Of a stretch of 36,010 nucleotides of DNA, positions 3 through 24,515 are shown in pieces. The notes beneath the pieces were generated by a model. The model saw only the letters and a program-made list of their open reading frames with translations. It was not told where the DNA came from and searched no databases. The stretch is from NCBI GenBank assembly GCA_903905655.1, contig CAIVHG010000092.1:1-36010 (forward strand), read 5' to 3'. Position numbers and translations under genes: made by a program. The stretch's first letter is position 1. Each line of letters begins with the position of its first letter. This DNA comes from an uncultured beta proteobacterium (GTDB lineage Bacteria > Pseudomonadota > Gammaproteobacteria > Burkholderiales > SG8-41).

Positions 3-1547
3 GCCGAAGCCCACTGCAATTGCGGCGTCGTGCTTGCCGACCTCAAGCGCTATGAGGCGGCGTGCGCCTGCTGCGAGCGGGCGCTCGCGCTCGCGCCGGA
101 CCTTGCCGATGCCTACAACAATCTCGGCAATGCGCTGCGCGAATTCAGGCGCCAGCAGAAGGCGCTCGCGAGCTGCGAGCGCGCGCTGACGCTGAATCCG
201 CATCACGCCGCAGCCCACAGCAATCGCGGCCACGCACTGCGCGAACTCAGGCGACCCGCGGAGGCGCTCGCGAGCTACCAGCAGGCGCTGGCGCTGGCGC
301 CCGCCGCTGCGCAGGCGTACAACGATCTCGGCAATGCGCTGCGCGAACTCAGGCGCCCGGCAGAGGCGCTCGCGAGCTACCAGCGGGCGCTGGCACTGGC
401 GCCCGCCGCTGCAGGCGCGTATGTCAATCGCGGCAATGCACTGCTCGAGCTGGAGCATTACGTAGCGGCACTGGATAGCTACGAGCACGCGCTCGCGACC
501 GACCCCGGTTCGGCAGAAGCGCACTGCAATCGCGGCGTCCTGCTGGCTCAGCTCAGGCGCTACGATGCGGCGCTGGAAAGTTATGCGCGCGCGATCGCGA
601 TCGTCCCCGACTATGCCTCCGCGCATCACAATCTGGCGCTGTGCTGTATGCAGCATGGCGATTGGGCGCGCGGCTGGAAGGAATACGAATGGCGCTGGGT
701 GGAAGAGCAGCTCGAGCACAAGCACCGCGGCTTCTCCCAGCCGCTGTGGCTGGGCGCACAGCCGTTGCAAGGCAAGACGCTGCTTCTGCATAGCGAACAG
801 GGCCTGGGCGACACGCTGCAGTTCTGCCGCTACGTCCCGCTGCTCGCCGACAGAGGAGCGCGCGTGGTGCTGGAAGTGCAGCCGCCGCTGCTGCCGCTGC
901 TCGCCGGCCTGGTGGGAGCGGCGCAGGTGCTGGAGCGGGGCGTGCCGCTGCCGGCCTTCGATTACCACTGTCCGCTGCTCAGCCTGCCGCTCGCGTTCAA
1001 CACGCAACTCAACGACATTCCGCTGGGCATTCCGTATGTGCAGAGCAATCCCCCACGGGTCAGCGCCTGGCAGCGCACGCTGGGGGCGCAGGCGAAGCCG
1101 CGGGTCGGGCTCGTCTGGAGCGGCAGCCTCATACATCGGAACGACCGCAATCGCAGCATCGCGCTCGCGCAGTTGCTGCAGGTGTTATCCGCGAACATCG
1201 AGTGGATCAGTTTGCAGCAGCAGTTGCGGCAAGCGGACGCGCAGCTGCTCGCCTTGCACCCTGAGATCCGCAACTATGCGGATCAGCTCGTCGACTTCGC
1301 GGACACGGCGGCGCTGGTGGAACTGATGGATCTGGTGGTGACGGTGGATACCGCGGTCGCGCACCTCGCCGGCGCGATGGGCAAGCCGGTGTGGATCCTG
1401 CTGCCGCACAACAGCGACTGGCGCTGGCTGCTCGATTGCGTAGACAGTGGATGGTATCCAACGGCGCGGTTATTCAGGCAGCCTGCGATGGGCGACTGGG
1501 CGAGCGTGATACAGCAGGTGGGCGCGGAACTCGCGCGGTGCTACTGA
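3..1547 (+). CDS. TPR protein with C-terminal GT9-like glycosyltransferase domain (5' partial)
   Basis: The reading frame is open from the first bases of the window and already encodes a TPR unit, so the true start lies upstream; the GTG at 30 is inside a repeat and is not a credible start. The first ~205 visible residues are about six 34-residue TPR units, with helix-pair signatures such as NNLGNALRE and YNDLGNALRE. A linker with WKEYEWRW follows, then a domain of ~255 residues starting near HSEQGLGDTLQFCRY (residue ~250) and ending with VTVDTAVAHLAGAMGKPVW. This resembles ADP-heptose/GT9-type glycosyltransferases and is typically found C-terminal to TPRs. Adjacent 102-bp units (241-342 and 343-444) are nearly identical in DNA. 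It is the first of five related genes on this strand, and 72 bp separate it from the next. Activity and acceptor are unknown; a soluble cytoplasmic protein is likely because no membrane segment is seen. Confidence 0.85.
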   Translation, partial: AEAHCNCGVVLADLKRYEAACACCERALALAPDLADAYNNLGNALREFRRQQKALASCERALTLNPHHAAAHSNRGHALRELRRPAEALASYQQALALAPAAAQAYNDLGNALRELRRPAEALASYQRALALAPAAAGAYVNRGNALLELEHYVAALDSYEHALATDPGSAEAHCNRGVLLAQLRRYDAALESYARAIAIVPDYASAHHNLALCCMQHGDWARGWKEYEWRWVEEQLEHKHRGFSQPLWLGAQPLQGKTLLLHSEQGLGDTLQFCRYVPLLADRGARVVLEVQPPLLPLLAGLVGAAQVLERGVPLPAFDYHCPLLSLPLAFNTQLNDIPLGIPYVQSNPPRVSAWQRTLGAQAKPRVGLVWSGSLIHRNDRNRSIALAQLLQVLSANIEWISLQQQLRQADAQLLALHPEIRNYADQLVDFADTAALVELMDLVVTVDTAVAHLAGAMGKPVWILLPHNSDWRWLLDCVDSGWYPTARLFRQPAMGDWASVIQQVGAELARCY

Positions 1548-1619
1548 CGCTGCGACCTGCGCACCGGAGCTCCACACAGAGGCGGCAAGCGCTGGCTGCA
1601 CAGTGTTATGGAGTAGACT

Positions 1620-4070
1620 TTGGGCATGCCCCGCACTTCCAGCAAACCGCGGACTTCCAATCGCACTTCACCTGACGTAACTACAACGCAGGCGCAGCAG
1701 CGCTTCGCGCAGGCTTTTGCCCTGCACCAGCAGGGCCGGCTCGCGCAGGCGCAGGCGCTATACGAGCAGGTGCTTGCCATGCTTCCTGGTCATTCCGATG
1801 CGCTGCACATGACCGGGGTGATCGCATTGCAGACCGGAAAATGCGAGCGCGCCGCGGCAGTCATTAGTCAGGCCCTGCAGATCGATCCCGGCAATGCGGA
1901 TGCCCATTACAACCGCGGGATTGCACTGGAGTCGCTTGGTCGGCAGGTGGCGGCGATCGCGAGCTACGAGCAGGCGCTCGTGTTGAAGCCCAGCTATGCG
2001 GCAGCCTACAATAACTGCGCGATCGCGCTCAAAGATCTGGACCCACCCGCGGCCCTGCGCTGCTTCGGACGGGCGATCGCGCTCCTGCCGGATTTTGCCG
2101 AAGCCCTCAACAACTGCGGCAATGTGCTGAGAGACCTGCAGCGGCATGCGGCGGCACTGCACAGCTACGAGCGCGCCATCGCGCTTGCTCCAGGCTATGT
2201 GCAAGCGTACTGCAATCGCGGCCTTGCGCTCACGGATCTGGGGCGGAACGAGGCGGCCTTGAGCAGTTACCGGCGCGCGCTTGCGCTGAAGCCCGGGGAT
2301 GCAGATGCGCATGACGGCTGCGGTATCGCTCTCGACCATCAGCAGCAGCCCGGCGCTGCGCTGCAATGCTTTGAGCTTGCGATCGCGCTCAGGCCGGATT
2401 ACGCGGACGCCTACAACAATCGCGGCAGCGCGCTGCGCGGACTTCGGCGCCATGCGGCGGCACTCGCGAGCATCGAGCGGGCGCTCGCGTTGCAATGCGA
2501 CCATGCCGCGGCCCACAACAATCGCGGAGTCACGCTGCGCGAGCTCGCACAGTCCGCAGCAGCGCTGACCAGCTTCGAGCATGCGATTGCACTCGATCCG
2601 CGCTTTGCGGATGCGTACTACAACCACGGCAATGCATTGCGCGATTTCACGCAGCTGGAAGCGGCCCTGCACAGCCTGGCCCGCGCCCTCGCGCTGCGGC
2701 CCGATTGTCCCTATCTGTACGGACTGCTCCTGCACACCAAGATGCACCTGTGTGACTGGACCGACCAGGAGCCGGAATTCCTGGAACTGACAGCAAAGAT
2801 CGAACGCGGCGAGCAGGCGTCGATCCCGTTTGCTGTGCTCGCGATCAGCGATGCTCCTGCGTTGCAACGCAAGGCTGCGGAGATCTGGATGCAGGCGCAA
2901 TATCCGCCCCGCCGCTCGCTGCCTGAACTGCGTGCTCATGCCCGGCACGACAAGATCCGCGTCGGCTACTATTCCGCGGACTTTCACGATCATCCCACTG
3001 CGTATCTGATCGCGGAGCTGTTCGAGAGGCACGACCGGACGAAGTTCGAGCTGACTGCGTTCTCGTTCGGCCCGCAGCGCAACGACGCCATGCGCCGCCG
3101 GCTCGCCGCAGCCTTTGACCGCTTCATCGACGTGAGCGGCAATGATGACACACAGGTGGCGGCGCTCTCCAGGGAGCTGGCGATAGACATTGCGATCGAC
3201 CTCAAGGGCTACACTCATGGCAGCAGGCCGGGGATTTTCGCCGCGCGGGCGGCGCCGCTGCAGGTCGGTTATCTGGGCTATCCCGGAACCATGGGTGCCT
3301 CGTACATCGACTATCTGATTGCGGATCGCACGCTGATACCGCCGGAGAGCCAGCGCCATTACTGCGAGCAGATCATCTATCTGCCCGACAGCTATCAGGT
3401 CAACGATGGCCAGCGCGCGATCGCGGAGCGGTCGCTGACGCGGGAGCAGGCGGGGCTGCCGCCGACCGGTTTCGTCTACTGCTGCTTCAACAACAATTAC
3501 AAGATCACGCGCGCTGCGTTTGATGGCTGGATGCGCATCCTCGAGCGCGTCGATGGCAGCGTGCTGTGGCTGCTGGAAGGCAGCGCCGCGGCTGCCGGCA
3601 ACCTGCTCAGGGAAGCGCAGGCGCGGGGCATCTCTCCTGAACGGCTGGTGTTCGCCAAGCGCATGCCCATGCCGGAGCATCTGGCGCGGCAGCGGCTGGC
3701 GGATATCCTGCTCGATACGCTGCCCTGCAATGCGCATACGACGGCGAGCGATGCGCTGTGGGCGGGGCTACCGGTGCTGACGCGCGCGGGCGAGTCGTTC
3801 GCCGGCAGAGTGGCGGCCAGCCTGCTCAACGCCATCGGCCTGCCGGAGCTTGTCACGAAGACGCAGGAGCAATACGAGGCGCTGGCGGTGGAACTTGCGG
3901 AGCATCCGCAGCGCCTGCTGGATCTCAGGCTCAGGCTGGAGCGGAACCGGCGGACGGCGCCGCTGTTCGACACGCGGCGATTCGCGGAAAATTGCGAAGC
4001 GGCCTATGCGGAGATCTACGAGCGGCAGCAGGCGGATTTGCCGCCGGATCACATTTACATCGGGGACTGA
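1620..4070 (+). CDS. TPR-SPINDLY-type O-GlcNAc transferase (GT41 family)
   Basis: A protein of 816 aa. Residues ~25-370 are about ten TPR units. The C-terminal half, from KIRVGYYSADF (residue ~445), is the SPINDLY/OGT catalytic region: SADFHDHPTAYL carries the His of the GT41 N-lobe motif, followed by DIAIDLKGYTHGSRPGIF, LGYPGTMGASYIDYLIAD, FNNNYKI and the nucleotide-sugar-binding stretch HTTASDALWAGLP (~705). Family members transfer GlcNAc or another sugar from a nucleotide donor to Ser/Thr of proteins; the substrate here is unknown. The start is taken as TTG at 1620 because GGAG at 1610-1613 is six bases upstream; ATG at 1626 is the alternative, with longer spacing. The gene at 9219 has the same arrangement (AGGG, then TAAACT, then TTG), which supports the TTG. 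Its N-terminus matches the 9219 product, not the other GT41 protein. Confidence 0.88.
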   Translation: MGMPRTSSKPRTSNRTSPDVTTTQAQQRFAQAFALHQQGRLAQAQALYEQVLAMLPGHSDALHMTGVIALQTGKCERAAAVISQALQIDPGNADAHYNRGIALESLGRQVAAIASYEQALVLKPSYAAAYNNCAIALKDLDPPAALRCFGRAIALLPDFAEALNNCGNVLRDLQRHAAALHSYERAIALAPGYVQAYCNRGLALTDLGRNEAALSSYRRALALKPGDADAHDGCGIALDHQQQPGAALQCFELAIALRPDYADAYNNRGSALRGLRRHAAALASIERALALQCDHAAAHNNRGVTLRELAQSAAALTSFEHAIALDPRFADAYYNHGNALRDFTQLEAALHSLARALALRPDCPYLYGLLLHTKMHLCDWTDQEPEFLELTAKIERGEQASIPFAVLAISDAPALQRKAAEIWMQAQYPPRRSLPELRAHARHDKIRVGYYSADFHDHPTAYLIAELFERHDRTKFELTAFSFGPQRNDAMRRRLAAAFDRFIDVSGNDDTQVAALSRELAIDIAIDLKGYTHGSRPGIFAARAAPLQVGYLGYPGTMGASYIDYLIADRTLIPPESQRHYCEQIIYLPDSYQVNDGQRAIAERSLTREQAGLPPTGFVYCCFNNNYKITRAAFDGWMRILERVDGSVLWLLEGSAAAAGNLLREAQARGISPERLVFAKRMPMPEHLARQRLADILLDTLPCNAHTTASDALWAGLPVLTRAGESFAGRVAASLLNAIGLPELVTKTQEQYEALAVELAEHPQRLLDLRLRLERNRRTAPLFDTRRFAENCEAAYAEIYERQQADLPPDHIYIGD

Positions 4071-4150
4071 CGCATGCGCACCATTCCATCAGCACCAAGT
4101 ATCATGGGCAGAGGTTTCTATGTTGACGCTTTGCAATGGTGTGGTGTGCG

Positions 4151-4936
4151 ATGATGACGACTGATGAGCGGATATCGTATGCGGGCTGTCCCTTGTGCGA
4201 GCATGCGGTGGCGAAAGATCTGCGCAGCGGCGATTGCTCCAAGCATCCGCTCTATCAGCCTTCACTGTCGCCGGATATCCGCTGGAAGCAGTGCGCCGGC
4301 TGCGGGCACATCTATACCGAGGGCTATTACACGGCCGCGGCCTGCAGCCTGATCTTCGGCAAGACCAACCCGAATCAGATGTTCGGCCATGACGTCGAGG
4401 GGCAGCGGCAGGTCTCGGCGCGCATCATCGAAAAGGTGCTGCCGTACGCCGCCGGCGGCCATTGGCTGGACGTCGGTTTCGGCAGCGGATCGCTGCTGTT
4501 CACCGCCCGCGAATACGGCTATCTGCCGGTCGGCACCGATTTGCGCACACAGAACGTCGCTGCCATGTCGGCGCTGGGCATACCGGCATATCAGGTTGAG
4601 TTGGGCGAGTTGTCGATCGCCGAGAAATGCGCGGTCGTCAGCATGGCGGACGTGCTGGAGCACATGCCGTTTCCCAAGGTGGGCCTGCGCGCGGCGCACG
4701 GCCTGCTGGAAGACGGCGGCGTCCTGTTCGTCTCGATGCCCAACATGGAGAGCGTCGTGTGGTCCGCGCTCGATCAGCACGCAGCGAATCCCTACTGGGG
4801 GGAACTCGAGCACTATCACAACTTCAGCCGCAGCCGGCTCTACGCGCTGCTGCGAGAATGCGGCTTCGAGCCGCTGCGCTATGGCATCAGCGAACGCTAT
4901 CGGGTGTGCATGGAGGTGATTGCTCGCAAGCGCTGA
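4151..4936 (+). CDS. zinc-ribbon class I SAM-dependent methyltransferase
   Basis: About 261 aa. The N-terminus holds a probable zinc ribbon (CPLC, then CAGC about 36 residues later). A Rossmann methyltransferase fold follows: motif I is WLDVGFGSGSLL, the acidic residue after strand 2 is in VGTDLRT, and the post-I region is VVSMADVLEHMPFP, typical of Methyltransf_11/23 proteins. The motif VLEHMPFP and the C-terminal HYHNFSRSRL suggest a sugar- or lipid-modifying type of methyltransferase, but the substrate cannot be read. The frame is open from ATG 4136; ATG 4151 or 4154 gives MTTDERISY, a more typical N-terminus directly before the zinc ribbon. No start has a strong Shine-Dalgarno. A 14-codon ORF (4120-4164) behind AGAGG overlaps the start and could couple translation. 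It lies 80 bp after a GT41 gene, so methylation of a glycan or glycoprotein is a plausible role. Confidence 0.8.
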   Translation: MMTTDERISYAGCPLCEHAVAKDLRSGDCSKHPLYQPSLSPDIRWKQCAGCGHIYTEGYYTAAACSLIFGKTNPNQMFGHDVEGQRQVSARIIEKVLPYAAGGHWLDVGFGSGSLLFTAREYGYLPVGTDLRTQNVAAMSALGIPAYQVELGELSIAEKCAVVSMADVLEHMPFPKVGLRAAHGLLEDGGVLFVSMPNMESVVWSALDQHAANPYWGELEHYHNFSRSRLYALLRECGFEPLRYGISERYRVCMEVIARKR

Positions 4937-4937
4937 G

Positions 4938-4981
4938 CCATGCGTAGCGGCAGCGAAGTTGTTACACCCATGATTGCGTGC
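4938..4981 (+). repeat. direct repeat flanking the tctC island, left copy
   Basis: This ~44-bp stretch is about 80% identical to 6782-6825, including the shared 16-mer GCAGCGAAGTTGTTAC (4949-4964). The two copies are in direct orientation and bracket the tctC-type gene, its upstream region and the structured element, about 1.84 kb in all. Whether it is an insertion footprint or the remains of a duplicated intergenic region cannot be decided from sequence alone. Confidence 0.6.
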
Positions 4982-5012
4982 CGGCGATCGGCGAGTCCAG
5001 TCGCGTGTGGTT

Positions 5013-5990
5013 TTACTTCTTGAACACCTTCTGCCACTTCGCGATTTCGGTCGTGATGAACGTCCCGAAGTCCTGCGGCGTCGTGGGATTGGGCTGGCTT
5101 CCGCGCTGCAGGAGCCACGTCCGCACCTCCGCGTCGGCCAGCACATCGCGCGCCGCCTTGTTCAGCGTCGCGACGACATCCGGCGGCAAGCCGCGCGGAC
5201 CGGACAGTCCATAGAAGCCCGTGACGGAATAGCCCGGCAGCGTCTCCGCGATCGTCGGCACGTCCGGCAGCAACTCGAAACGCCGCAAATCGGTCACTGC
5301 GAGCACGCGGAGCGTACCGGCCTTCATCGCCGGCAGGACGACGTTCACGGTGGCGAAAGTGTAATCGACCTTGTCCGCGAGGACCTCCTTGACCGACTGC
5401 GGATTGCCCTCCGACGGCACCCGCTTCACGTCGATCCCGGTCTGCGATATCAGGAGTTCCGAGGCCATGTGAGTGACGCTGCCGTTCACGACGGCGGTCG
5501 AGAGGCCGCCGGGCTTTTTGCGTGCCAGCGCGATGAGATCGGCAACCGACTTCGCCGGCGAGTCTGCTTTGACCGCAAGCGTTGTGACGTTGGCGGCGAG
5601 CATCGTGATCGGCGTGAAATCTTTTAACGGGTCGTAAGGCTGCGAGGGCTGCAGGGCCGGATTGAGGATGTGAAACGTGAAATCGAGCAGCAGCGTGTAT
5701 CCGTCGGGCTTCGCCCGCACGACCGCCAGCGCGGCCTCGTTGCCGTCGCCGCTCGCCGTGTTCTGGATTTCGATGGGTTGACCGAGCCGTTTCGAAAGAG
5801 CACCGGCAATGAAGCGGCCCAATACGTCAGAGCCGCCGCCGGCTTCGCCCACGACCACGAGCCGGATCGGCTGGCTCGGATAGCTGGCGGCTGCAGCCAT
5901 GGCGTCAGCGGCGGCGCCGGCCAGGACGGACATCAACAGGAAAGCACCCAGATGTAATGCTGGCTGGCGTAGCCAGCGTAATGGCCTCAT
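5013..5990 (-). CDS. Bug/TctC-type tripartite tricarboxylate transporter substrate-binding protein
   Basis: A protein of 325 aa, the family's usual length. ATG at 5990 is preceded by GAGGAG six bases away. The N-terminus is a signal peptide (RWLRQPALHLGAFLLMSVLAG with cleavage near AMAAA), followed by the family's first strand YPSQPIRLVVVGEAGGGSD and the conserved DGYTLLL. Such proteins bind small carboxylates in the periplasm and usually feed TctA/TctB permeases. No tctA or tctB is present, so this is an orphan receptor, as is common in Burkholderiales. It is the only minus-strand gene inside the plus-strand TPR-glycosyltransferase cluster, and it is flanked by direct repeats (4938-4981 and 6782-6825), suggesting it was inserted. 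The ligand is unknown. Confidence 0.9.
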   Translation of the reverse strand: MRPLRWLRQPALHLGAFLLMSVLAGAAADAMAAAASYPSQPIRLVVVGEAGGGSDVLGRFIAGALSKRLGQPIEIQNTASGDGNEAALAVVRAKPDGYTLLLDFTFHILNPALQPSQPYDPLKDFTPITMLAANVTTLAVKADSPAKSVADLIALARKKPGGLSTAVVNGSVTHMASELLISQTGIDVKRVPSEGNPQSVKEVLADKVDYTFATVNVVLPAMKAGTLRVLAVTDLRRFELLPDVPTIAETLPGYSVTGFYGLSGPRGLPPDVVATLNKAARDVLADAEVRTWLLQRGSQPNPTTPQDFGTFITTEIAKWQKVFKK

Positions 5991-6232
5991 TGAAGCTCCT
6001 CAGGTCGTGCAAATGATTCATTCGTGGTGCGCGGCGACGCGCGGACGGTGTCGGTCAACGCGCATATTGCCCCTGTATTCGCGCCTCGTGGGTGATTTTG
6101 CTCTTCGTCGCGACGTCGGAGAGTAACGTAGCCGCAGGTGGTAGGAGATCTAACCCTTAACTTAACCCTTAACCCGCCTTTCCCGCTACGCGCGACTATA
6201 TCGATCGCCCGGCAAGCGGTCAATCGCACCAT

Positions 6233-6304
6233 GTCTGGTGAAAATTTCGCCACATTTGTCCCGCACACGTCCTCACGACAGTAAACTATTCTTCAACGAA
6301 CTAA
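6233..6304 (+). repeat. intergenic repeat, copy A (interrupted)
   Basis: This stretch matches the reverse complement of about 17732-17806 at roughly 80-85% identity, including AATTTCGCCAC, GCACACG, CCTCACGA and AACGAACTAA. In the other copy the sequence continues straight into AGACTCAGGGC. Here it breaks at 6304 and resumes after the structured element as AAGACTCAGGACACTA (6720-6735). The comparison therefore shows that the element between them is an insertion. Confidence 0.7.
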
Positions 6305-6718
6305 GGAACCTCTGATTGACTCCCACGCGGATTGCGTTGTGGCAAAATGCGGATGGATGCGAGACGCGCGACGAAGGTCGTAGCTGGACTACGATGCCGA
6401 GGAGCGCGGCGAAGCAGACGGTGCGCCGAAGCGCGGAGCAGGGACCCATTTATGGGATGCGACCGCGAAGGCGGACGTGGGCAGCGAAATGCGGCGCACT
6501 CGGCCCGCTGCCGGGTCGCATCTACGCACTTAGGTGCGTAGAAACTGCTCCGCCGTTCGCGGTCCATTTTGCCACAACCCGCTAGGGACGGGGGCTTTGC
6601 GGGCGATCTGCTTTGTCGCTCGGCTTGCTAAGGGGATGGCCATTAGCTGCGCCGCGCTTCGCGCATCTCATCCCGCAAAGCCCCCGTCGCAACCGTGCGG
6701 GACTTAATCAGAGGTTCC
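6305..6718. mobile_element. 414-bp structured MITE-like element with terminal inverted repeats
   Basis: Ends GGAACCTCTGATT (6305-6317) and AATCAGAGGTTCC (6706-6718) are perfect inverse complements; counting flanks, 20 of 24 positions match. No transposase or other gene is inside. The interior is packed with inverted repeats: TTGTGGCAAAATG 6337-6349 with 6565-6577; 6461-6475 with 6549-6564; GGCAGCG near 6480-6486 with 6506-6512; CTACGCAC-TTAG-GTGCGTAG 6522-6541; CCCAT-TT-ATGGG 6445-6456; TCGTAG with CTACGA 6378-6394; and a perfect 16-bp pair 6588-6603 with 6672-6687. It interrupts an intergenic repeat whose uninterrupted copy lies near 17.7 kb. A target-site duplication is unclear. It is probably a non-autonomous element mobilised in trans, and a structured transcript is also possible. 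Confidence 0.65.
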
Positions 6719-6781
6719 CAAGACTCAGGACACTAATGCCGTCCGCAGGTCCGTCGACCGCGCGAGGCATACCCGGAAAGC

Positions 6782-6825
6782 CCATGACCAGCCGCAGCGA
6801 AGTTGTTACCCACATGATCGCGCGT
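6782..6825 (+). repeat. direct repeat flanking the tctC island, right copy
   Basis: Partner of 4938-4981. The identical core GCAGCGAAGTTGTTAC is at 6794-6809. It lies immediately upstream of the second GT41-type gene. Confidence 0.6.
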
Positions 6826-6866
6826 GTGCGATCGCCGCGTCGCGCCAACCGTGCGCGGATCGCGCG

Positions 6867-9167
6867 GTGGTAGCGTCCACCGTCACCCTGGCGCAGGCGG
6901 TCGAACTCGCGGCGGCCGCCTATCAGCACGGGGATTGGCCGGAGGCAGAGCGGCTGTGCAGGCTCATGCTCGAGGCGCATCCGCACTATTTCGACGCGCT
7001 CTACCTGCTGGGCATCATCGCGGCGCAGACCGGGCGCACGGCTGAGGCGGCCGCACTGCTGATGCAGGCGGTCGCGCTCGATGCCGCGCACGCCGACGCC
7101 CGCAACAATCTCGGCGTCGTGCTGCGCGCGCTCAGGCGCTACCCGGAGGCGCTGGACAGCTACGAGCGTGCGATCGCGCTCGAGCCCGCGGTGGCGGAGC
7201 CGTACGCAAATCGCGGCAATGCGCTGCAGGATCTAAAACGTTACGACGCGGCGCTCACCAGTCAGAAGCGGGCGCTCGCGCTGGCGCCCGCATACGCGGA
7301 AGCCTGGATCAACCGCGGCAACGTACTGCGCGACCTCAGGCGCCTGGACGATGCGCTCGCGAGCTACGAGCGGGCGCTGGCGCTTGCGCCACAGCACGCG
7401 GGGGCCCACAGCAATTGCGGCGTCGTGCTGACAGAACTCAAGCGCTACCCGGAGGCGCTCGCAAGCTGCGAATGTGCGATCGCGCTGGCGCCTGACGGCG
7501 CGGACGTTTACGGGCATCGCGGCAATGTGCTGCGCGAAATGCGCCGCTACGATGCAGCGCTCGCGAGCTGCGGGCGTGCGCTCGCGCTCGATCGCGAATT
7601 CGCGGAAGTACACAGTGCGCACGGCAACGCGCTGCGTGATCTCAGGCGCGACGATGAGGCGCGCGTGAGCTTTGAGCGGTCGATTGCGCTTGCGCCTGAC
7701 CATGCTGATGCGTACGTCAATTGCGGCAATGTGCTGCTGGATCTCAGGCGACAGCTTGAGGCATTGGAGCGCCTGCAGCGCGCCCTGCAGATCAGGCCGG
7801 ACTACGACTACCTGTACGGCGCCTGGCTGCACACCAAGCAGGGAATCTGTGACTGGCGCGGCATCGAAAGCGATCTGCTGCATCTGACCGCGCAAATCGG
7901 GCGCGGCGTAAAGGCGGCCAATCCTTTTGCCGTGGTCACTGCGATCGACTCCCCTGGCCTGCAGAGAACGGCTGCAGATATTCTTGCACAGGACCGCTAT
8001 CCTCCCGATGATGCGCTGCCAGCGCTGCTGAGGTATCCCCGGCGCGCGAAGATCAGCATCGGCTATTACTCCGCAGACTTTCACGATCACGCGACCTCTT
8101 ATCTGATGGCGGGGCTGTTCGAGGCGCACGACCGCAGCCGGTTCGAGATCATCGGATTTTCTTTCGGCGCGGAAACGCAGGGGCCGATGCGGCAGCGGCT
8201 GAGCGCGGCTATCGATGAGTTCATGGACGTGCGGGCGCTGAGCGACCAGGAGGTGGCGAAGCTCTCGCGCGAGCGCGCGATCGACATCGCGGTCGATCTG
8301 AAGGGCTATACCCAACACGGCAGGCCCGGCATATTTGCCGAGCGCGCGGCGCCGATCCAGGTGAACTACCTCGGTTATCCGGGCACCATGGCTGCGCCGT
8401 ATATGGATTATCTGATCGCCGACCCGGTGCTCATACCAGAGGAAAGCCGGTGGCACTATGCCGAGAAGATCGTCTATCTGCCCCACAGCTATCAGGTCAA
8501 CGACTCACAGCGCGTGATCGCGGAGGTCGCGTTCAGGCGCGAGCAGCTCGGCTTGCCGCCCACGGGCTTCGTCTACTGCTGCTTTAACAACGATTACAAG
8601 ATCGCGCCCGCCGTGTTCGATAGCTGGATGCGCATCCTCGACAGCGTCGAAGGCAGCGTGCTGTGGCTGCTTGAAGATAACGCCGGCGCTGCCTTCAACT
8701 TGCGGCGCGAGGCCGAGCTGCGGGGAATCGCTGGCGGGCGGCTGGTGTTTGCCGGGCGCATGACCCAGGCCGAGCACCTGGCGCGGCACCGGCTGGCCGA
8801 TCTGTTTCTGGACACGCTGCCGTGCAATGCGCACACCACCGCGAGCGACGCGCTGTGGGCCGGACTGCCGGTGCTGACATGCGTGGGGCAGAGCTTTGCG
8901 GCGCGGGTCGCGGCGAGCCTGCTGAACGCCATCAGTTTGCCGGAACTGATCGTATCCACTGCGCAGCAATACGTGGCGCGCGCCATTGAGCTCGCGACTC
9001 ACCCGCGGCGACTGCAGGACATCAGGACGAAGCTCGCCGCGAACCGGCTGACGGCGCCGCTGTTCGACACCCGGCTTTATGCGCAACACATCGAAGCGGC
9101 ATACGCGCAGATCTATGAGCGCTACCATGCCGGCCTGCCGCCCGATCACATCCACGTGGCAGCGTGA
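6867..9167 (+). CDS. TPR-SPINDLY-type O-GlcNAc transferase (GT41 family), second copy
   Basis: A protein of 766 aa. Residues ~5-330 are TPR units. The catalytic region begins at KISIGYYSADFHDHATSYL (~395) and contains DLKGYTQHGRPGIF, LGYPGTMAAPYMDYLIAD, FNNDYKI and HTTASDALWAGLP (~656). The C-terminal domain closely matches that of the 1620 protein, down to the final PPDHI. The N-terminus (AYQHGDWPEAERLCRLML), in contrast, matches the GT9-like protein starting at 11039. The start is GTG at 6867, chosen because it puts the N-terminus level with the 11039 homologue; the ribosome-binding site is weak. The probable role is transfer of a sugar from a nucleotide donor to Ser/Thr of a protein in the cytoplasm. 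The next gene follows after 51 bp, so these are probably co-transcribed. Confidence 0.87.
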   Translation: MVASTVTLAQAVELAAAAYQHGDWPEAERLCRLMLEAHPHYFDALYLLGIIAAQTGRTAEAAALLMQAVALDAAHADARNNLGVVLRALRRYPEALDSYERAIALEPAVAEPYANRGNALQDLKRYDAALTSQKRALALAPAYAEAWINRGNVLRDLRRLDDALASYERALALAPQHAGAHSNCGVVLTELKRYPEALASCECAIALAPDGADVYGHRGNVLREMRRYDAALASCGRALALDREFAEVHSAHGNALRDLRRDDEARVSFERSIALAPDHADAYVNCGNVLLDLRRQLEALERLQRALQIRPDYDYLYGAWLHTKQGICDWRGIESDLLHLTAQIGRGVKAANPFAVVTAIDSPGLQRTAADILAQDRYPPDDALPALLRYPRRAKISIGYYSADFHDHATSYLMAGLFEAHDRSRFEIIGFSFGAETQGPMRQRLSAAIDEFMDVRALSDQEVAKLSRERAIDIAVDLKGYTQHGRPGIFAERAAPIQVNYLGYPGTMAAPYMDYLIADPVLIPEESRWHYAEKIVYLPHSYQVNDSQRVIAEVAFRREQLGLPPTGFVYCCFNNDYKIAPAVFDSWMRILDSVEGSVLWLLEDNAGAAFNLRREAELRGIAGGRLVFAGRMTQAEHLARHRLADLFLDTLPCNAHTTASDALWAGLPVLTCVGQSFAARVAASLLNAISLPELIVSTAQQYVARAIELATHPRRLQDIRTKLAANRLTAPLFDTRLYAQHIEAAYAQIYERYHAGLPPDHIHVAA

Positions 9168-9218
9168 TGCGTGTAGCCGCAGAGGGCGCGTTTAGATCGC
9201 GGAATCATAGGGTAAACT

Positions 9219-11042
9219 TTGTCGGTGGTTACCAAGCTCGATCACATGCACGACGGCGCTGTCGCCGGTAATGCGGCGCAGCGGCTGTTCGACGCAGGCT
9301 ACGCGTTGCACGGGGAGGGCCGGCTCGCGCAGGCGCTGGCGCTGTATGAGCAGGTGCTGGCGATCGAGCCCGGGCATTTCGATGCCCTGCACATGACGGG
9401 CGTGATCGCATATCAGTCCAAAGACCCTCAACGCTCAGTAGATCTGATCGGCAGGGCGCTGGAAAACAATTCCCGCGATGCGGCCGCCTACTACAACCAC
9501 GGCGTTGCGCTGCAGGCGCTGGGGCAGCACACTGCGGCTGCAGTCAGCTACGAACGCGCCATTGCGCTCAAGGCCGGCTATGCGGACGCCCACAACAACC
9601 TCGGCATCGCGCTGCAGGAACTCGGCCGGGTCGATGCCGCCCTGCAGAGCTTCGAGCGCGCGCTTGCGCTGCAGCCCGATCATGTGCACGGCCACAACAA
9701 TCTCGGCAATGCGCGGCGGGCGCTCAATCACCCTCAGGCGGCGGTCGAATGTTATGAACGGGCGCTCGCGCTGGCGCCCGCGTACGCGGAGGCGCACGAC
9801 AACCGCGGCGTCGCGCTCGCCGACCTCGACAGCTGCGCGGCGGCGCTCGCAAGCCATGAACGGGCGCTCGCGCTTGACCCCGGACGCGGCGGGGCCTATT
9901 ACAACCGCGGCAATGCGCTGCGCGATCTCAGGCGCCACGAGTGCGCACTGCAATGCTACGAGCGGGCGTTCGCGCTGGCGCCCGGTGACATCCTGGTCCA
10001 CATCAATCGCGGCAACGCGTTGCGCGAATTGAAGCGCTACGAGGCAGCGCTCGCGGCCTACCAACAGGCGCTGGCACTCGACGCGCAGCATCCAGGGGCG
10101 CATCTCAACAGCGCCCTGTGTCTGCTGCAAATGGGGGACTATGCGCGCGGCTGGAAGGAATACGAATGGCGCTGGCGGGAAGCGCAAACCGACACGGACC
10201 GGCGCGACTACCCGCAGGCGCTGTGGCTGGGCACGCCATCGTTGGAAGCCAGGACGCTGCTGCTGCACAGCGAACAGGGCCTGGGCGACACGCTGCAGTT
10301 CTGCCGCTACCTGCCGCTGCTCGCAAGAGCAGGAGCGCATGTGCTGCTGGAAGTGCAGCCGCCGCTCGCGCCGCTGTTCGCGGGATTCGAGGGCGCGGCG
10401 CTCGTGCTGGCGCGAGGCACGCCGCTGCCGGCCTTCGATTACCACTGCCCGCTGCTGAGCCTGCCGCTTGCGTTCAGGACGGAGCTCGACGACATACCGC
10501 TGGGCATTCCCTATATCAGGAGCGATGCAGAGCGCGTTAGCGCCTGGAGCAGCACGCTGGGAGCAAAGGTGCGGCCGCGCATCGGGCTGGCGTGGAGCGG
10601 CAGCGCCAAACACACCAACGACCGCAACCGCAGCATCGCGCTCGCGCACTTGCTGCCCATGTTATCCGAAGACATCGAGTGGATCAGCCTGCAGCAGGAA
10701 GTGCGGGCGGCGGACGCGTCGGTGCTCGCTGCGCATCCTGAGATCCGTCACTACGGTGAGCAGCTCGTGAACTTTGCGGAGACGGCAGCATTGCTGGAAC
10801 TGCTGGACCTGGTGGTGACGGTGGACACGGTGGTCGCGCATCTGGCCGGCGCGATGGGCAAGCCGGTGTGGATCCTGCTGCCCTACAACAGCGACTGGCG
10901 CTGGCTCGTGGAGCGCGAGGACAGCGCCTGGTATCCAACGGCGCGCCTGTTCCGGCAACCCGAAATCGGTGATTGGGCGAGCGTGATGCTGCGGGTCAGT
11001 GAGGAACTCGACCGCAGGTACTGTACAGCGGGCGCGCCATGA
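9219..11042 (+). CDS. TPR protein with C-terminal GT9-like glycosyltransferase domain
   Basis: A protein of 607 aa. Residues ~10-310 are about nine TPR units and a GT9-like domain begins near HSEQGLGDTLQFCRY (~350). The conserved tail VTVDTVVAHLAGAMGKPVW and WYPTARLFRQPEIGDWASV are shared with the genes ending at 1547 and 12709. The start is TTG at 9219 with AGGG six bases upstream, in the same context as the 1620 gene. The N-terminal 100 residues (GRLAQALALYEQVLAIEPGH, DALHMTGVIA) match the GT41 protein at 1620, although the C-terminal domain is different. The stop overlaps the next start in ATGA, implying translational coupling. Sugar donor and acceptor are unknown. Confidence 0.87.
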   Translation: MSVVTKLDHMHDGAVAGNAAQRLFDAGYALHGEGRLAQALALYEQVLAIEPGHFDALHMTGVIAYQSKDPQRSVDLIGRALENNSRDAAAYYNHGVALQALGQHTAAAVSYERAIALKAGYADAHNNLGIALQELGRVDAALQSFERALALQPDHVHGHNNLGNARRALNHPQAAVECYERALALAPAYAEAHDNRGVALADLDSCAAALASHERALALDPGRGGAYYNRGNALRDLRRHECALQCYERAFALAPGDILVHINRGNALRELKRYEAALAAYQQALALDAQHPGAHLNSALCLLQMGDYARGWKEYEWRWREAQTDTDRRDYPQALWLGTPSLEARTLLLHSEQGLGDTLQFCRYLPLLARAGAHVLLEVQPPLAPLFAGFEGAALVLARGTPLPAFDYHCPLLSLPLAFRTELDDIPLGIPYIRSDAERVSAWSSTLGAKVRPRIGLAWSGSAKHTNDRNRSIALAHLLPMLSEDIEWISLQQEVRAADASVLAAHPEIRHYGEQLVNFAETAALLELLDLVVTVDTVVAHLAGAMGKPVWILLPYNSDWRWLVEREDSAWYPTARLFRQPEIGDWASVMLRVSEELDRRYCTAGAP

Positions 11043-12709
11043 CAGCTTCCAGCCCGACCCTGATGCAAGACGCCGGACTGGCGGTCGCCGCTTACCAACG
11101 AGGCGATTGGGCGGAGGCGGAGCGCTTGTGCCGTCTGATTCTTGGCAGCAACGCAGACCATTTCGAAGCGCTCTACCTCATGGGCATGATCGCAGGCCAG
11201 ACGCAGCGCGCGCCAGAAGCCGCTCAACTGCTGGCGCGGGCGGCTGCGCTCAATCCGCTGCGCGCCGATGTCTGCAACTATCTGGGCATCGTGCTCAGAG
11301 AACTAGGGCGCCTGGATGAGGCGCTCGCGAGCCACGAGCGGGTCGTCGTGCTCGCGCCGGAGTTTGCGCAAGCCTACAACAACTGCGGGGTGCTGCTCGC
11401 CGAGCTGCACCGTCCCGAAGCAGCGTTGCGGCGCTTCGACAGCGCGCTTGTGCAGGCGCCCACTGATGCACAAGCACACAACAACCGCGCCAATGCGCTG
11501 CGCGCGTTGCGGCGTCCCGAAGCGGCGCTGGAAGGCTATGCGCAGGCGATCTCGCTGCGGCCCGCTTATGCAGAAGCCCATAGCAATCGCGGCGTCGCGC
11601 TCGCCGAACTCGGACGCTGCGAGGAGGCGATCGCTAGCCACGATCTAGCGATTGCGCTCGAGCCTGGCTATGCGGACGCCTACAGCAATCGCGGTCTGGT
11701 GCTAGCCGACTTGAAGCGCCACGCTGCGGCGCTCGCGAGCTATGGCCGCGCGCTTGCGCTCAAGCCGGACGCTGCACCCGCGCACTCGAACCGCGCGCTA
11801 TGCCTACTGCAACTCGGGGACTATACGCGCGGCTGGGAGGAATACGAATGGCGCTGGCATACCGGCTATATGGAGCAGGACCGGCGCGATTATGTACAGC
11901 CGCTGTGGCTGGGTTCACCGTCGCTCAAAGGCAAGACCATCTTGCTGCACAGCGAGCAGGGCCTGGGCGACACGCTGCAGTTCTGCCGCTATGCGCCGCT
12001 GCTCGCGGCGATGGGCGCGCGGGTGGTGCTCGAAGTGCAGACGCCGCTCGTGCTCCTGCTCGCCGGCCTCAAGGGGGCGGCGCAGGTGCTGGCGCGCGGC
12101 GCAGCGCTGCCGGCCTGCGATTACCACTGTCCGCTGCTGAGCCTGCCGCTCGCATTTAAAACTGAACTGAATGACATTCCTCTGGGCATTCCCTATGTGG
12201 CGAGCGACGCGGCTCACCATGCCGCGTGGCAAAGCGCATTGGGAGCAAAGGCCAAGCCGCGCATCGGGCTCGCGTGGAGCGGTCGGGCCACGCACACCAA
12301 TGACCGCAATCGCAGCATGGCGCTTGCGCAGCTGCTGCCTTTGCTATCCGCGGACATGGAGTGGATCAGCCTGCAGCAGGAGGTGCGGGCAGCGGACGCA
12401 CCGGCGCTCGCCGCGCACCCTGAGATCCGTCACTACGGAGATCGGTTGATAGATTTCGCTGACACCGCGGCGTTGGTGGAGCAGACGGATCTCGTGATCA
12501 CTGTGGACAGCGTGGTCGCGCACCTCGCGGGCGCAATGGGCAAGCCGGTGTGGGTCCTGCTGCCGTACAACAGCGACTGGCGCTGGCTCGCGGAGCGCGA
12601 AGACAGCCCGTGGTATCCAACGGCGCGCTTGTTTCGTCAGCAGGCGATCGGCGACTGGGCAGGCGTGATACGACGCATCGGCGCTGAACTCGCGCGTTGG
12701 CGGTCGTGA
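11039..12709 (+). CDS. TPR protein with C-terminal GT9-like glycosyltransferase domain, third copy
   Basis: A protein of 556 aa. ATG at 11039 overlaps the preceding stop (ATGA), so it is probably translated by coupling. TPR units fill residues ~10-265, and the GT9-like domain starts near HSEQGLGDTLQFCRYAPLL (~303), with VITVDSVVAHLAGAMGKPVW near the end. The N-terminus (AYQRGDWAEAERLCRLIL) is like the GT41 protein at 6867, whereas the catalytic domain is like the 9219 product. It ends the plus-strand cluster; about 50 bp downstream begins a long imperfect palindrome. Function is inferred only from fold and context. Confidence 0.87.
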   Translation: MTASSPTLMQDAGLAVAAYQRGDWAEAERLCRLILGSNADHFEALYLMGMIAGQTQRAPEAAQLLARAAALNPLRADVCNYLGIVLRELGRLDEALASHERVVVLAPEFAQAYNNCGVLLAELHRPEAALRRFDSALVQAPTDAQAHNNRANALRALRRPEAALEGYAQAISLRPAYAEAHSNRGVALAELGRCEEAIASHDLAIALEPGYADAYSNRGLVLADLKRHAAALASYGRALALKPDAAPAHSNRALCLLQLGDYTRGWEEYEWRWHTGYMEQDRRDYVQPLWLGSPSLKGKTILLHSEQGLGDTLQFCRYAPLLAAMGARVVLEVQTPLVLLLAGLKGAAQVLARGAALPACDYHCPLLSLPLAFKTELNDIPLGIPYVASDAAHHAAWQSALGAKAKPRIGLAWSGRATHTNDRNRSMALAQLLPLLSADMEWISLQQEVRAADAPALAAHPEIRHYGDRLIDFADTAALVEQTDLVITVDSVVAHLAGAMGKPVWVLLPYNSDWRWLAEREDSPWYPTARLFRQQAIGDWAGVIRRIGAELARWRS

Positions 12710-22537: not shown

Positions 22538-22645
22538 CACGGTCATCCTCCTCTGAGATCCGGGGCCGCCGGGCGCTGCCCGGTGCACGGACCCGAATCA
22601 TAGGCATAGTGGCACTAGGCCGTCAAACGCAGCCGCCTGCTGCGC

Positions 22646-23419
22646 TCACAGCACTCCCGAAACCCCGCCGTCGAGATTGATGCTGGTTCCCGTCACGTAG
22701 CTCGCGGCGTCCGAAGCGAGAAAGGCGATGACGTTGGCGACTTCTTCGGCTTCGCCGACGCGGCCGAGCGGGATGTTCTTGCCGGCATCGGCGTAGTGCT
22801 GCTCGAGCGTTTTGCCGATGCGCTCCCGGTGGTATTCATGCTGGCCGGCCTTGACTCTGCCGATGCACACCGTGTTGACGAGGATGTTGTCGGGCGCTAG
22901 ATCTTTGGATAGCGCCTTGGTAAGGGCGAGGCCCGCGGCGCGCGTCACCGAAGTCGGCACCGAATTCGCGCGGGGCTGTTTGCCGGCGATGGCGGTGAGG
23001 TTGATGATGCGCCCGCCGCCCTGCTTTTTCATGTGCGGGATGGCAAGCCGGGACAGCCTGATCGCCGCGAACAGCTTGAGGTCGATGTCCTCCTGCCACG
23101 CAGCATCGTCGAGTTCGAGGAAGGAGTGCGCTGCCCTGGTGCCGGCATTGTTGATCAGGATGTCGAGCCGGCCCCACTTATCGATGATCGCTTTCACGAA
23201 ACGCTCGAGCGCCGGCACTTGCGTCACGTCGGCCTGGATGCCGATCGCAGCGCCGCCCGCTGCTTCGATTTCCGCGACGGTCTCTGCGATGCGTTGCGTG
23301 TCGCGTGCGCAGATCGCCACTTTCACGCCTTCGCGTGCGAGCAGCAGCGCGGTCGCCTTGCCTATGCCCTGCGTGCCGCCCGAGATCGCCGCAACCTTGC
23401 CCTTGAGTCCCAGCTCCAT
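22646..23419 (-). CDS. short-chain dehydrogenase/reductase-like protein lacking YxxxK (copy 1)
   Basis: A protein of 257 aa. Rossmann glycine motif GGTQGIGKA (TGxxxGxG type), ADVTQ, INNAG and C-terminal YVTGTSINLDGGVSGVL are classical SDR features. At the active site, however, the usual Ser...YxxxK reads INLTAIAGK...PTSVTRAAG, so Tyr and Lys are replaced by Thr and Arg. The start is the second of two adjacent ATGs (23419), which leaves six bases after GGAG and matches the start of the paralogue; 23422 is the alternative. It is highly similar to the next gene (23603-24376), evidently a tandem duplication. The substrate and even redox activity are uncertain. Confidence 0.85.
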   Translation of the reverse strand: MELGLKGKVAAISGGTQGIGKATALLLAREGVKVAICARDTQRIAETVAEIEAAGGAAIGIQADVTQVPALERFVKAIIDKWGRLDILINNAGTRAAHSFLELDDAAWQEDIDLKLFAAIRLSRLAIPHMKKQGGGRIINLTAIAGKQPRANSVPTSVTRAAGLALTKALSKDLAPDNILVNTVCIGRVKAGQHEYHRERIGKTLEQHYADAGKNIPLGRVGEAEEVANVIAFLASDAASYVTGTSINLDGGVSGVL

Positions 23420-23471
23420 CATTCGCTCCTTGCAGTCAACCCGCTTTCAGTTTGCGGACCTTCTGCGTGAT

Positions 23472-23599
23472 AGCAAAGTTGCGAGAGGTTATGGCGGGAT
23501 CGCAATTCTGCCCTGCTGATTGTTGAAATGGCGGGTGTGACCCGCCCGTGCGCTGTTCGCGATCTATTTTGCGCTGCCGAAACCATCAGAGCAACTTTG
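23472..23599. repeat. inverted repeat enclosing a dispersed palindrome between the SDR copies
   Basis: GCAAAGTTGC (23473-23482) and GCAACTTTGC (23591-23600) are inverse complements. Between them at 23528-23548 sits one copy of the GGCGGGTGTGACCCGCC repeat. Confidence 0.6.
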
Positions 23600-23602
23600 C
23601 GC

Positions 23603-24376
23603 TCACAACACTCCCGAAATACCGCCGTCCAGATTGATGCTGGTTCCGGTCACGTAGCTCGCGGCGTCCGAGGCGAGGAAAGCGATTACATTGGCGACTT
23701 CTTCGGCTTCGCCGACGCGGCCCAGCGGGATGCCCTTGCCGGCATCGGCGTAGTGCTGCTCGAGCGTCTTGCCCAGGCGCGCCGCGTGCTGCACGTGCTG
23801 GCCGGCCTTGATCCTGCCGACGCAAACGGTATTGACGAGGATGTTGTCGGGCGCGACATCTTTGGACAGCGCCTTGGTGAGGGCGAGGCCCGCGGCGCGC
23901 GTCACCGAGGACGGCATGGAATTCGCGCCGGGCTGCTTGCCGGCAATGGCGGTGAGGTTGATGATGCGCCCTCCGCCTTGTTTTTTCATGTGCGGGATGG
24001 CGAGCCGGGAGAGGCGGATCGTCGCAAGCAGCTTGAGGTTCATGTCATCCTGCCACCCGGCATCGTCGATCTTGAGGAAGGGGGCCGCGGCGCTGGTGCC
24101 GGCGTTGTTGACCAGGATGTCGAGCCGGCCCCATTGTTCGATGATCGCTTGCACGAAGTGCTCGATCGCCGGCGCCTGCGTCACGTCGGCCTGGATGCCG
24201 ATGACATCACCGCCTGCTGCCTTGATCTCGGCCACCGTTTCTTCGAGGCGTTGCACGTTGCGCGCGCAGATCGCCACCTTCGCGCCTTCGAGCGCGAGCC
24301 GCAGCGCCGTTGCCTTGCCTATGCCCTGCGTGGCGCCTGAGATTGCCGCTACTTTGCCCTTGAGGCCCAGTTCCAT
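23603..24376 (-). CDS. short-chain dehydrogenase/reductase-like protein lacking YxxxK (copy 2)
   Basis: A protein of 257 aa starting MELGLKGKVAAISGATQGIG at 24376, with GGAG five bases before the ATG; the frame extends upstream to 24481, but those residues have no counterpart in copy 1. Cofactor motif GATQGIGKA, ADVTQ, VNNAG and the terminal GTSINLDGGISGVL are all present. The catalytic segment is INLTAIAGK...MPSSVTRAAGLALTKAL, again without YxxxK. Differences from copy 1 are scattered (for example ALEGAKVAICARNVQRLEE), so the duplication is not recent. Divergent from the GMC oxidoreductase gene, with which it shares a 139-bp intergenic region. Confidence 0.85.
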   Translation of the reverse strand: MELGLKGKVAAISGATQGIGKATALRLALEGAKVAICARNVQRLEETVAEIKAAGGDVIGIQADVTQAPAIEHFVQAIIEQWGRLDILVNNAGTSAAAPFLKIDDAGWQDDMNLKLLATIRLSRLAIPHMKKQGGGRIINLTAIAGKQPGANSMPSSVTRAAGLALTKALSKDVAPDNILVNTVCVGRIKAGQHVQHAARLGKTLEQHYADAGKGIPLGRVGEAEEVANVIAFLASDAASYVTGTSINLDGGISGVL

Positions 24377-24515
24377 TTTTGCTCCGTGTGCTGGTCGTCG
24401 ATGTTCCGTAATGCTACGCGATATCAGAGGCGAGGTGTACAGCGCGAGTGTGGCGGCAGGGCGTGCTGCACATGTTAGCATTCGCTATGCGAAATGAAAG
24501 TAGAGAGAACGGCAG

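What the first reader, a model, noticed from the sequence alone, without database searches (positions are those of the whole stretch)
1620..12709. All four combinations of two N-terminal and two C-terminal modules in one TPR-glycosyltransferase cluster
The four complete TPR fusions show a matrix. N-type A (GRLAQA, LYEQVL, DALHMTGVIA) is in the proteins at 1620 and 9219; N-type B (GDW.EAERLCRL.L) is in those at 6867 and 11039. C-type GT41/SPINDLY is in 1620 and 6867; C-type GT9-like is in 9219 and 11039. So A-GT41, B-GT41, A-GT9 and B-GT9 all exist side by side. The repetitive TPR DNA in the middle is an obvious place for recombination that swaps target-recognition ends between two enzyme types. 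A system in which the same scaffold recruits both an O-GlcNAc-transferase-type and a GT9-type enzyme to shared targets would be new to me.
Basis: partly seen in the sequence, partly recalled or inferred. Interest (0 to 1): 0.75.

Follow-up and report, generated by a model that had tools for sequence, protein, structure and literature searches.

The report
Shuffled TPR ends on two glycosyltransferases
In this bacterium a family of repeat-protein sugar-transferring enzymes has swapped its front ends between two unrelated kinds of catalytic domain, so all four combinations sit side by side; this suggests that recombination in the repeats re-pairs recognition parts with enzyme parts.

Summary
Observation confirmed. 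Four complete TPR enzymes form the 2 x 2 matrix: A-GT41 (1620-4070), B-GT41 (6867-9167), A-GT9-like (9219-11042), B-GT9-like (11039-12709); a fifth TPR-GT9 (3-1547) is cut by the contig start. Cap and catalytic trees conflict with strong support, and within the A and B caps enzyme type changes as often as with shuffled labels. Mis-assembly is unlikely (longest exact match between a GT41-type and a GT9-type gene of the window: 23 nt). A same-genus genome shows the likely mechanism: adjacent TPR-GT41 and TPR-GT9 genes share a bounded 514-nt tract with 14 mismatches, and the middle gene has its left neighbour's head type and its right neighbour's TPR end. In another same-genus genome a B cap sits on a methyltransferase. 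Shuffling is well supported; that caps choose protein targets, or that the two enzymes share targets, is inferred and untested. TPR-GT41 and other TPR-GT fusions are known; near-free assortment between enzyme classes is the new part.

The parts
3..1547 (+). P0005: TPR-GT9-like protein cut by the contig start; cap not visible; GT9-like domain about 669-1544
   Evidence: GT9 tree groups it with P0003 and P0004 100/98
1620..4070 (+). P0001: A cap + TPR + GT41 (816 aa)
1689..1991 (+). A cap of P0001 (first TPR units)
   Evidence: A-cap model match E 2.9e-48; the model was built from this row among others
2754..4064 (+). GT41 catalytic region of P0001
   Evidence: aligns over 435 residues with X. 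campestris OGT, 2jlb
4136..4936 (+). P0006: SAM methyltransferase without TPR, 65 nt behind P0001, probably same operon
6867..9167 (+). P0002: B cap + TPR + GT41 (766 aa)
6885..7187 (+). B cap of P0002
   Evidence: B-cap model match E 2.6e-45 (model built from this row among others)
7851..9161 (+). GT41 catalytic region of P0002
   Evidence: sister of P0001's GT41, support 98/95
9219..11042 (+). P0003: A cap + TPR + GT9-like (607 aa)
9270..9575 (+). A cap of P0003
   Evidence: A-cap model match E 3.6e-50 (model built from this row among others)
10146..11018 (+). GT9-like catalytic domain of P0003
   Evidence: PF01075 24.8 bits
11039..12709 (+). P0004: B cap + TPR + GT9-like (556 aa), overlaps P0003 by 4 nt
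11057..11359 (+). B cap of P0004
   Evidence: B-cap model match E 2.6e-43 (model built from this row among others)
11828..12700 (+). GT9-like catalytic domain of P0004; model resembles heptosyltransferase II, a GT9 structure, WaaG and TibC

Best explanation
This is a paralogous family of probably cytoplasmic TPR-scaffolded glycosyltransferases in which the N-terminal cap plus TPR superhelix and the C-terminal catalytic domain (OGT/GT41 type or heptosyltransferase/GT9 type) behave as exchangeable modules. Shown: two cap types, two catalytic types, all four pairings, and conflicting trees. Supported by a same-genus genome: homologous recombination in the TPR DNA between tandem copies (unequal crossing-over and gene conversion) makes new pairings; two neighbours [cap1-GT41][cap2-GT9] would give [cap1-GT41][cap2-GT41][cap2-GT9]. 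Inferred from FlmG and OGT: the TPR part binds a protein target, GT41 puts a sugar on Ser/Thr, and the GT9-like head transfers a different (heptose-like) sugar to the protein or onto the first sugar, so re-pairing gives a target a new sugar or a sugar a new target.
For: Cap tree of 26 rows: the 5 own A caps (4 GT41, 1 GT9) are a clade 99/96; P0002, P0004, C42_41 and C77_9 (2 GT41, 2 GT9) are a clade 97/91. C42_41 with C77_9: 100/84 in the 86-row tree, 97/77 in the 26-row tree; their caps are 79% identical over 68 residues. Catalytic trees: P0001 (A) and P0002 (B) sisters 98/95; P0003 (A), P0004 (B), P0005 a clade 100/98. AU test rejects the 9 GT9-carrying caps as one clade, log-likelihood loss 131, p 1.4e-87. 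Enzyme-type changes on the cap tree: 9, shuffled mean 8.6 (26 rows); own genome 5 against 5.6 (16 rows). L151 (G004, same genus): TPR-GT41 frame 1353-3794 and next TPR-GT9 frame 3692-5539 share the TPR part at 79% aa over 295 residues; 1582-2095 has 14 mismatches in 514 nt, about 68% identity in the 94 nt 5' of it, falling identity after 2126; the middle gene's GT41 is the sister of the upstream gene's (62% aa, 95/89). B cap (124 bits against 69 for the A model) on a methyltransferase in G001, same genus. The GT9-like head folds nearest WaaF (1psw) and a GT9 structure (3tov), with TibC also high (that TibC acts on a protein is recalled).
Against: The window's own genes are too diverged (cap-and-TPR DNA about 65%) to show breakpoints; inner TPRs are near consensus, so the switch cannot be placed better than between about unit 3 and the catalytic domain. 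Cap trees rest on about 100 columns, many forks open. Only one clean recombination tract was found among 157 TPR frames compared for shared 30-mers, and it lies in a draft genome of 330 contigs; the first 94 coding bases there are only about 68% alike. The A/B matrix as such was not found in a relative. Function is inferred; no substrate or activity was shown.
Confidence: 0.7

Rival explanations
1. Gene conversion alone: caps and TPRs are overwritten between genes whose catalytic domains stay in place, so no new fusions arise; the matrix is concerted evolution of N-ends.
For: The L151 tract (1582-2095) is bounded on both sides like a conversion tract, with a less similar start of the gene 5' of it. 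Inner TPRs are alike between genes (49.6% at best register).
Against: In L151 the homology also covers the upstream GT41 domain (301-2215 against 2634-4563, 77%), i.e. a duplicated unit of catalytic domain plus next gene's TPR, which conversion alone does not make. A double fusion, TPR-GT9-TPR-GT9 in one 1381-aa frame, points to unequal exchange too.
Confidence: 0.3
2. The caps are not target-recognition parts; they set dimerisation or partner choice, or are neutral N-cap variants, and the swaps have little effect on targets.
For: Caps are simply the first two TPR units in the model (helices within residues 6-71); within the A and B caps the type is nearly independent of enzyme type, as neutral variation would be.
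Against: Ten positions differ without overlap between types irrespective of enzyme, and the B cap is kept on GT41 in all 6 of the 9 named loci whose head is visible, which speaks for constraint; FlmG's TPR part alone binds flagellin (PMC7591256, passages).
Confidence: 0.35
3. The enzymes build a surface glycan (LPS, exopolysaccharide) and do not modify proteins.
For: GT9 is the LPS heptosyltransferase family; in relatives, arrays of a more distant TPR-GT9 type are interleaved with GT2 and FkbM methyltransferase frames (5 of 7 non-TPR array neighbours scanned had such a match). WaaG, an LPS enzyme (recalled), is among the fold matches.
Against: GT41 heads align with X. campestris and other OGTs; TibC, a protein heptosyltransferase (recalled), is among the nearest folds; FlmG and OGT are protein modifiers; 4 of 31 flagellin stretches hold a TPR-GT gene.
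Confidence: 0.2
4. Mis-assembly of repetitive TPR DNA in a draft genome joined wrong halves.
For: The genome is a 113-contig draft at 69.7% completeness; TPR DNA is repetitive, and genes of one and the same enzyme type share exact stretches up to 42 nt in the window.
Against: A-GT9 and B-GT41 need joins across enzyme types; the longest exact match between a GT41-type and a GT9-type gene of the window is 23 nt, and none of the 12 longest of 136 own-genome pairs (28-51 nt) is across types. Both caps occur on GT41, and the B cap on GT9, on other contigs too; A-GT9 is seen only in the window.
Confidence: 0.03
5. Plain vertical descent: cap types and enzyme types diverged together; the motif matrix is chance similarity of TPR units.
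For: Inner TPR units of these proteins are about 50% identical anyway.
Against: Strong tree conflict and AU test; caps match inner units at only 27-31%.
Confidence: 0.02

Closest known systems
FlmG, the TPR-glycosyltransferase of Caulobacter flagellin (PMC7591256; passages read)
   Same: N-terminal TPR part and C-terminal GT-B domain, similar size (596 aa; TPR construct 1-313, GT construct 309-596); P0003 is 607 aa with the GT9-like domain from about residue 310; modular organisation with the TPR part as substrate binder.
   Different: One gene for the flagellins; no paralogous matrix in the passages read. Its catalytic domain was not compared here by sequence. The window holds no Flagellin_N match.
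Bacterial TPR-GT41 / O-GlcNAc transferase homologues (X. campestris OGT 2jlb; T. terrenum OGT, PMC4683255, passages; human OGT; SPINDLY)
   Same: TPR superhelix fused to GT41; P0001 aligns with 2jlb over residues 253-795.
   Different: Here a multigene family, whose TPR ends are shared with another enzyme class.
GT9 heptosyltransferases (WaaF 1psw, WaaC, 3tov) and TibC (4rap; protein role recalled)
   Same: Fold of the P0004 head: 1psw E 2.0e-7, 3tov 1.3e-6, then WaaG 8b62 5.6e-6, TibC 4rap 7.1e-6; PF01075 just over cut-off.
   Different: TPR fusion; sequence identity 11-14% in these fold matches; TM-score by query length 0.37 (WaaG) to 0.58, so a family-level likeness only.
Polymorphic toxins (PMC3482391; start of abstract seen in the listing)
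   Same: C-terminal domain diversity made by recombination.
   Different: Here transferases, with the TPR repeats themselves as recombination site, and N-ends mixing as well.

Membership tests
GT41 (OGT/SPINDLY family), P0001 and P0002 | GT41 domain match | tested here: met
   PF13844 304.9 and 296.0 bits, cut-off 25
GT41 (OGT/SPINDLY family), P0001 and P0002 | conserved lysine after CCFNN-Y and HTT nucleotide-sugar motif | tested here: met
   alignment of P0001 with 2jlb: the CCFNN-YK and P-NAHTTASDALW strings match; P0002 has them too; the roles of the residues are recalled, except that PMC4683255 marks a catalytic lysine
GT41 (OGT/SPINDLY family), P0001 and P0002 | transfer of GlcNAc, fucose or another sugar to Ser/Thr | not testable with these tools
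   needs enzyme assay
GT9 (heptosyltransferase family), P0003 and P0004 | GT9 profile match | tested here: met
   PF01075 24.8 and 23.4 bits, cut-off 22, best stretch 33 residues of the C-lobe
GT9 (heptosyltransferase family), P0003 and P0004 | GT-B fold like WaaF/WaaC | tested here: met
   Foldseek of the P0004 head: 1psw first, then 3tov; model pLDDT 80.3; moderate TM-scores; P0003 not folded
GT9 (heptosyltransferase family), P0003 and P0004 | heptose donor | not testable with these tools
   needs assay
FlmG-type modular flagellin glycosyltransferase | TPR N-part plus GT C-part in one protein | tested here: met
FlmG-type modular flagellin glycosyltransferase | TPR binds flagellin | not testable with these tools
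   needs two-hybrid or pull-down
FlmG-type modular flagellin glycosyltransferase | linkage with flagellin gene (not a strict criterion) | tested here: not met
   Both own Flagellin_N matches lie on contig C15, not in the window; one of them has a different, divergent TPR-GT41 double protein about 1.5 kb away.
FlmG-type modular flagellin glycosyltransferase | sequence kinship of the catalytic domain with FlmG | not tested
   FlmG's sequence was not on hand

The most novel reading that the evidence does not exclude
A combinatorial protein-modification system: recombination in the TPR core keeps re-pairing a small set of recognition caps with at least three kinds of catalytic head (GT41, GT9-like, methyltransferase), so that targets and modifications assort almost freely within one lineage, a repeat-driven counterpart of domain shuffling that could diversify surface or flagellar protein glycosylation quickly.
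Probability: 0.3. Interest if true: 0.78.

Novelty: new variant of a known kind. Interest (0 to 1): 0.55.

Why it matters
If the TPR end chooses the protein and the head chooses the sugar, nature has already made the cap-swap experiment: four natural chimeras in one cluster allow a direct test of which part of a TPR glycosyltransferase sets target and which sets sugar, an open question for OGT-type enzymes. It also gives a mechanism, recombination in TPR DNA, by which bacteria could re-wire protein glycosylation.

Tried and rejected
Mis-assembly was tested by exact-match length and thought unlikely for the window. Chance TPR similarity was tested with best-register internal blocks; an earlier control without register search mixed in out-of-register blocks and was replaced, and a first identity table had A and B caps one residue out of step, put right. 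A motif search for heads was too strict and missed P0004; BLAST with the heads replaced it. Flagellin as general substrate: 31 stretches around 31 of the 66 Flagellin_N matches (30 in 26 relatives, one own; several cut short by contig ends) were scanned, and 4 hold a TPR-GT (own C15, G036, G037, G032), so there is no general link. A seeming second tract in L134 turned out to be the overlap of two stop-to-stop frames, and L138/L139 are two contig ends of one genome, so neither was counted as proof. Block-wise identity to place breakpoints inside the window failed because P0001 loses register after about four units. The fold search of full-length P0004 was dominated by TPRs, so the head was folded alone. 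Rfam and tRNA scans of the window were empty. Literature: searches listed no paper whose title or abstract start tells of shuffling of TPR ends between GT41 and GT9; only open-licence PMC papers are held; passages of PMC7591256 and PMC4683255 were read, everything else was seen as a listing.
Full report
What is there. The window is the stretch 1-36010 of contig C92 of an unnamed draft genome of 2.55 Mb, 113 contigs, 69.7% complete, 0.21% contamination, probably a metagenome bin (inference). On the + strand lie five TPR-glycosyltransferase genes: P0005 (3-1547, TPR-GT9-like, cut at the contig start), P0001 (1620-4070, TPR-GT41), P0002 (6867-9167, TPR-GT41), P0003 (9219-11042) and P0004 (11039-12709), both TPR-GT9-like. 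With the start codons as listed, P0005, P0001 and a SAM methyltransferase P0006 (4136-4936) are 72 and 65 nt apart, P0002 and P0003 51 nt, and P0003 and P0004 overlap by 4 nt; so two probable operons, divided by a TctC-family gene on the other strand (5013-5990). The nine other frames of the window that were scanned look like metabolism (TctC, FAD-binding, LysR, PEP mutase, SDR, GMC, acyl-CoA synthetase, MmgE/PrpD) except one without a match.

The matrix. Caps were classed in the own genome by profile models built from the caps themselves: 5 A caps at E 3.0e-50 to 2.9e-48 and 11 B caps at E 2.0e-48 to 1.2e-42, with the next own hits of each model at 4.6e-26 and 1.4e-24; the models were trained on these rows, so the gap, not the score, is the evidence. 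A cap: GT41 at W1620, C26, C77, C20; GT9 at W9219. B cap: GT41 at W6867, C42, C70, C101 (C101 has an in-frame TAG between cap and head); GT9 at W11039, C77, C72, C38, C79a (two caps in one frame), C79b. Neither A nor B: C58 (GT41) and C15 (a divergent GT41 double protein); P0005's cap is missing. Cap and enzyme are not significantly associated by gene (A 4/1, B 4/6, Fisher p 0.28), though the numbers are small.

More than chance. In the own genome A-A identity is 40-59%, B-B 38-79%, A-B 25-41% over 68 residues. In the model of P0004 (pLDDT 86.8) the cap is the first two TPR helix pairs (residues 6-71) of an eight-pair superhelix that leads into the catalytic domain.

Trees. Cap tree of 26 rows (101 columns): own A caps 99/96, set of P0002, P0004, C42_41, C77_9 97/91; holding the 9 GT9 carriers together costs 131 log units, p 1.4e-87. 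Catalytic trees: in GT41 (29 rows, 437 columns) P0001 and P0002 pair at 98/95; A carriers as one clade are rejected (p 5.5e-11; this set includes two A-like genes of another genus, so part of the signal is species distance); the A/B label changes at least 5 times. In GT9 (19 rows, 291 columns) P0003, P0004, P0005 are a clade 100/98. This is a four-gamete conflict: no single tree fits both ends. Many forks are open, so counts are rough.

Mechanism from a relative. In L151 (G004:C132; same genus, 98% complete, 330 contigs) three genes stand in a row: gene 1 with GT41 (cut at the contig start), gene 2 TPR-GT41 (frame 1353-3794), gene 3 TPR-GT9 (3692-5539; 146 bits to the own GT9 model against 526-540 for the own heads, so a more distant GT9 type). 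Gene 2 and gene 3 share their TPR part at 79% over 295 residues, while their heads show no significant match (E 4.4); gene 2's GT41 is 62% identical to gene 1's and its sister in the tree (95/89). At DNA level 301-2215 matches 2634-4563 at 77%, 2333 nt or about one gene length apart. Inside lies a tract, 1582-2095, with 14 mismatches in 514 nt; the 94 nt before it, back to the likely start codon at 1488, are about 68% identical, and identity falls off after 2126, BLASTN ending at 2215. The position of gene 2 between its two likely parents is what unequal crossing-over in the TPR repeats predicts, and the tract looks like a later conversion (inference). The longest exact match there is 133 nt, so a short-read artefact inside the tract cannot be wholly excluded, but that this TPR occurs on both heads does not depend on it. 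Among 157 TPR frames of the fetched stretches compared for shared 30-mers (52 GT41, 93 GT9, 12 other) three pairs of different head type shared any: this one, L134 (a frame overlap) and L138/L139 (two contig ends of G002; 75% aa over 130 residues). In the window the longest exact match between a GT41-type and a GT9-type gene is 23 nt, so its swaps are older and hardly assembly joins.

Wider picture. One scan of named genomes with the B cap gave 9 loci, by title mostly betaproteobacterial bins; 6 of the 9 show a head and all 6 are GT41, 2 are cut by contig ends, 1 was too weak to class. So B-GT41 may be older than B-GT9 (inference). In relatives the A/B matrix itself was not seen: a same-genus gene carries a B cap on a methyltransferase (L133; B 124 bits, A 69), G022 has a B-like cap on GT9 (86 against 64), G024 two A-like caps on GT41 (121 against 90, 94 against 85), and most other caps fit both models about equally. 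All 41 genomes have a P0004 match at E <= 0.001, but such a match can be TPR alone. Seven fetched stretches from seven same-genus genomes (L153-L158, L160) hold 5 or 6 frames each of a more distant TPR-GT9 type (161-224 bits), and 5 of 7 non-TPR neighbours scanned there match GT2 or FkbM methyltransferase. Seven of 29 close-family GT41 genes (over 300 bits) have a GT9 neighbour of either type on the same strand within 300 nt.

What it does. GT41 heads align with X. campestris OGT including the lysine and HTT motifs. The GT9-like head, only weakly matched by Pfam, folds nearest to E. coli heptosyltransferase II and a Veillonella GT9, then WaaG and TibC, a heptosyltransferase that I recall to act on a protein. 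FlmG's TPR part binds flagellin and its GT part alone does not (PMC7591256, passages). By analogy the TPR end selects a protein and the head the sugar. That is the best reading, not a result: no substrate is known, and a TPR-GT gene is near flagellin in only 4 of 31 stretches.

Verdict. Observation confirmed; recombination reading well supported; shared targets untested. The parts are known kinds; their near-free assortment between two transferase families within one genome, with a bounded tract in a relative, was not met in the listings.

Noticed in passing
L062:2042-6184 (+), own contig C79: One 1381-aa frame holds TPR-GT9 followed by a second B cap, TPR and GT9: a head-to-tail double enzyme.
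   Followed up: partly
L053:7906-12027 (+), own contig C15; flagellin frame L053:4911-6401 (-): A 1374-aa frame with two divergent GT41 domains and a cysteine-rich start that resembles a SEC-C motif (not scanned) lies about 1.5 kb from one of the two Flagellin_N matches of this genome; candidate flagellin glycosyltransferase.
   Followed up: partly
L063:5590-8175 (+), own contig C101: B-cap TPR-GT41 gene with an in-frame TAG between the 336-aa and 525-aa parts; pseudogene or assembly error.
   Followed up: no
L187:8977-10692 (-), G037:C1 near 1038419-1040692: A TPR-GT9 frame lies about 150 bases from a flagellin match, on the same strand; a natural FlmG-like arrangement to test.
   Followed up: no
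window 22641-23432 and 23598-24388: Two neighbouring stretches are 86% identical over 792 nt (an SDR gene and its neighbour): a tandem duplication outside the TPR cluster.
   Followed up: no
window 33086-35116 (+): 676-aa frame without any Pfam match at E 1e-8.
   Followed up: no
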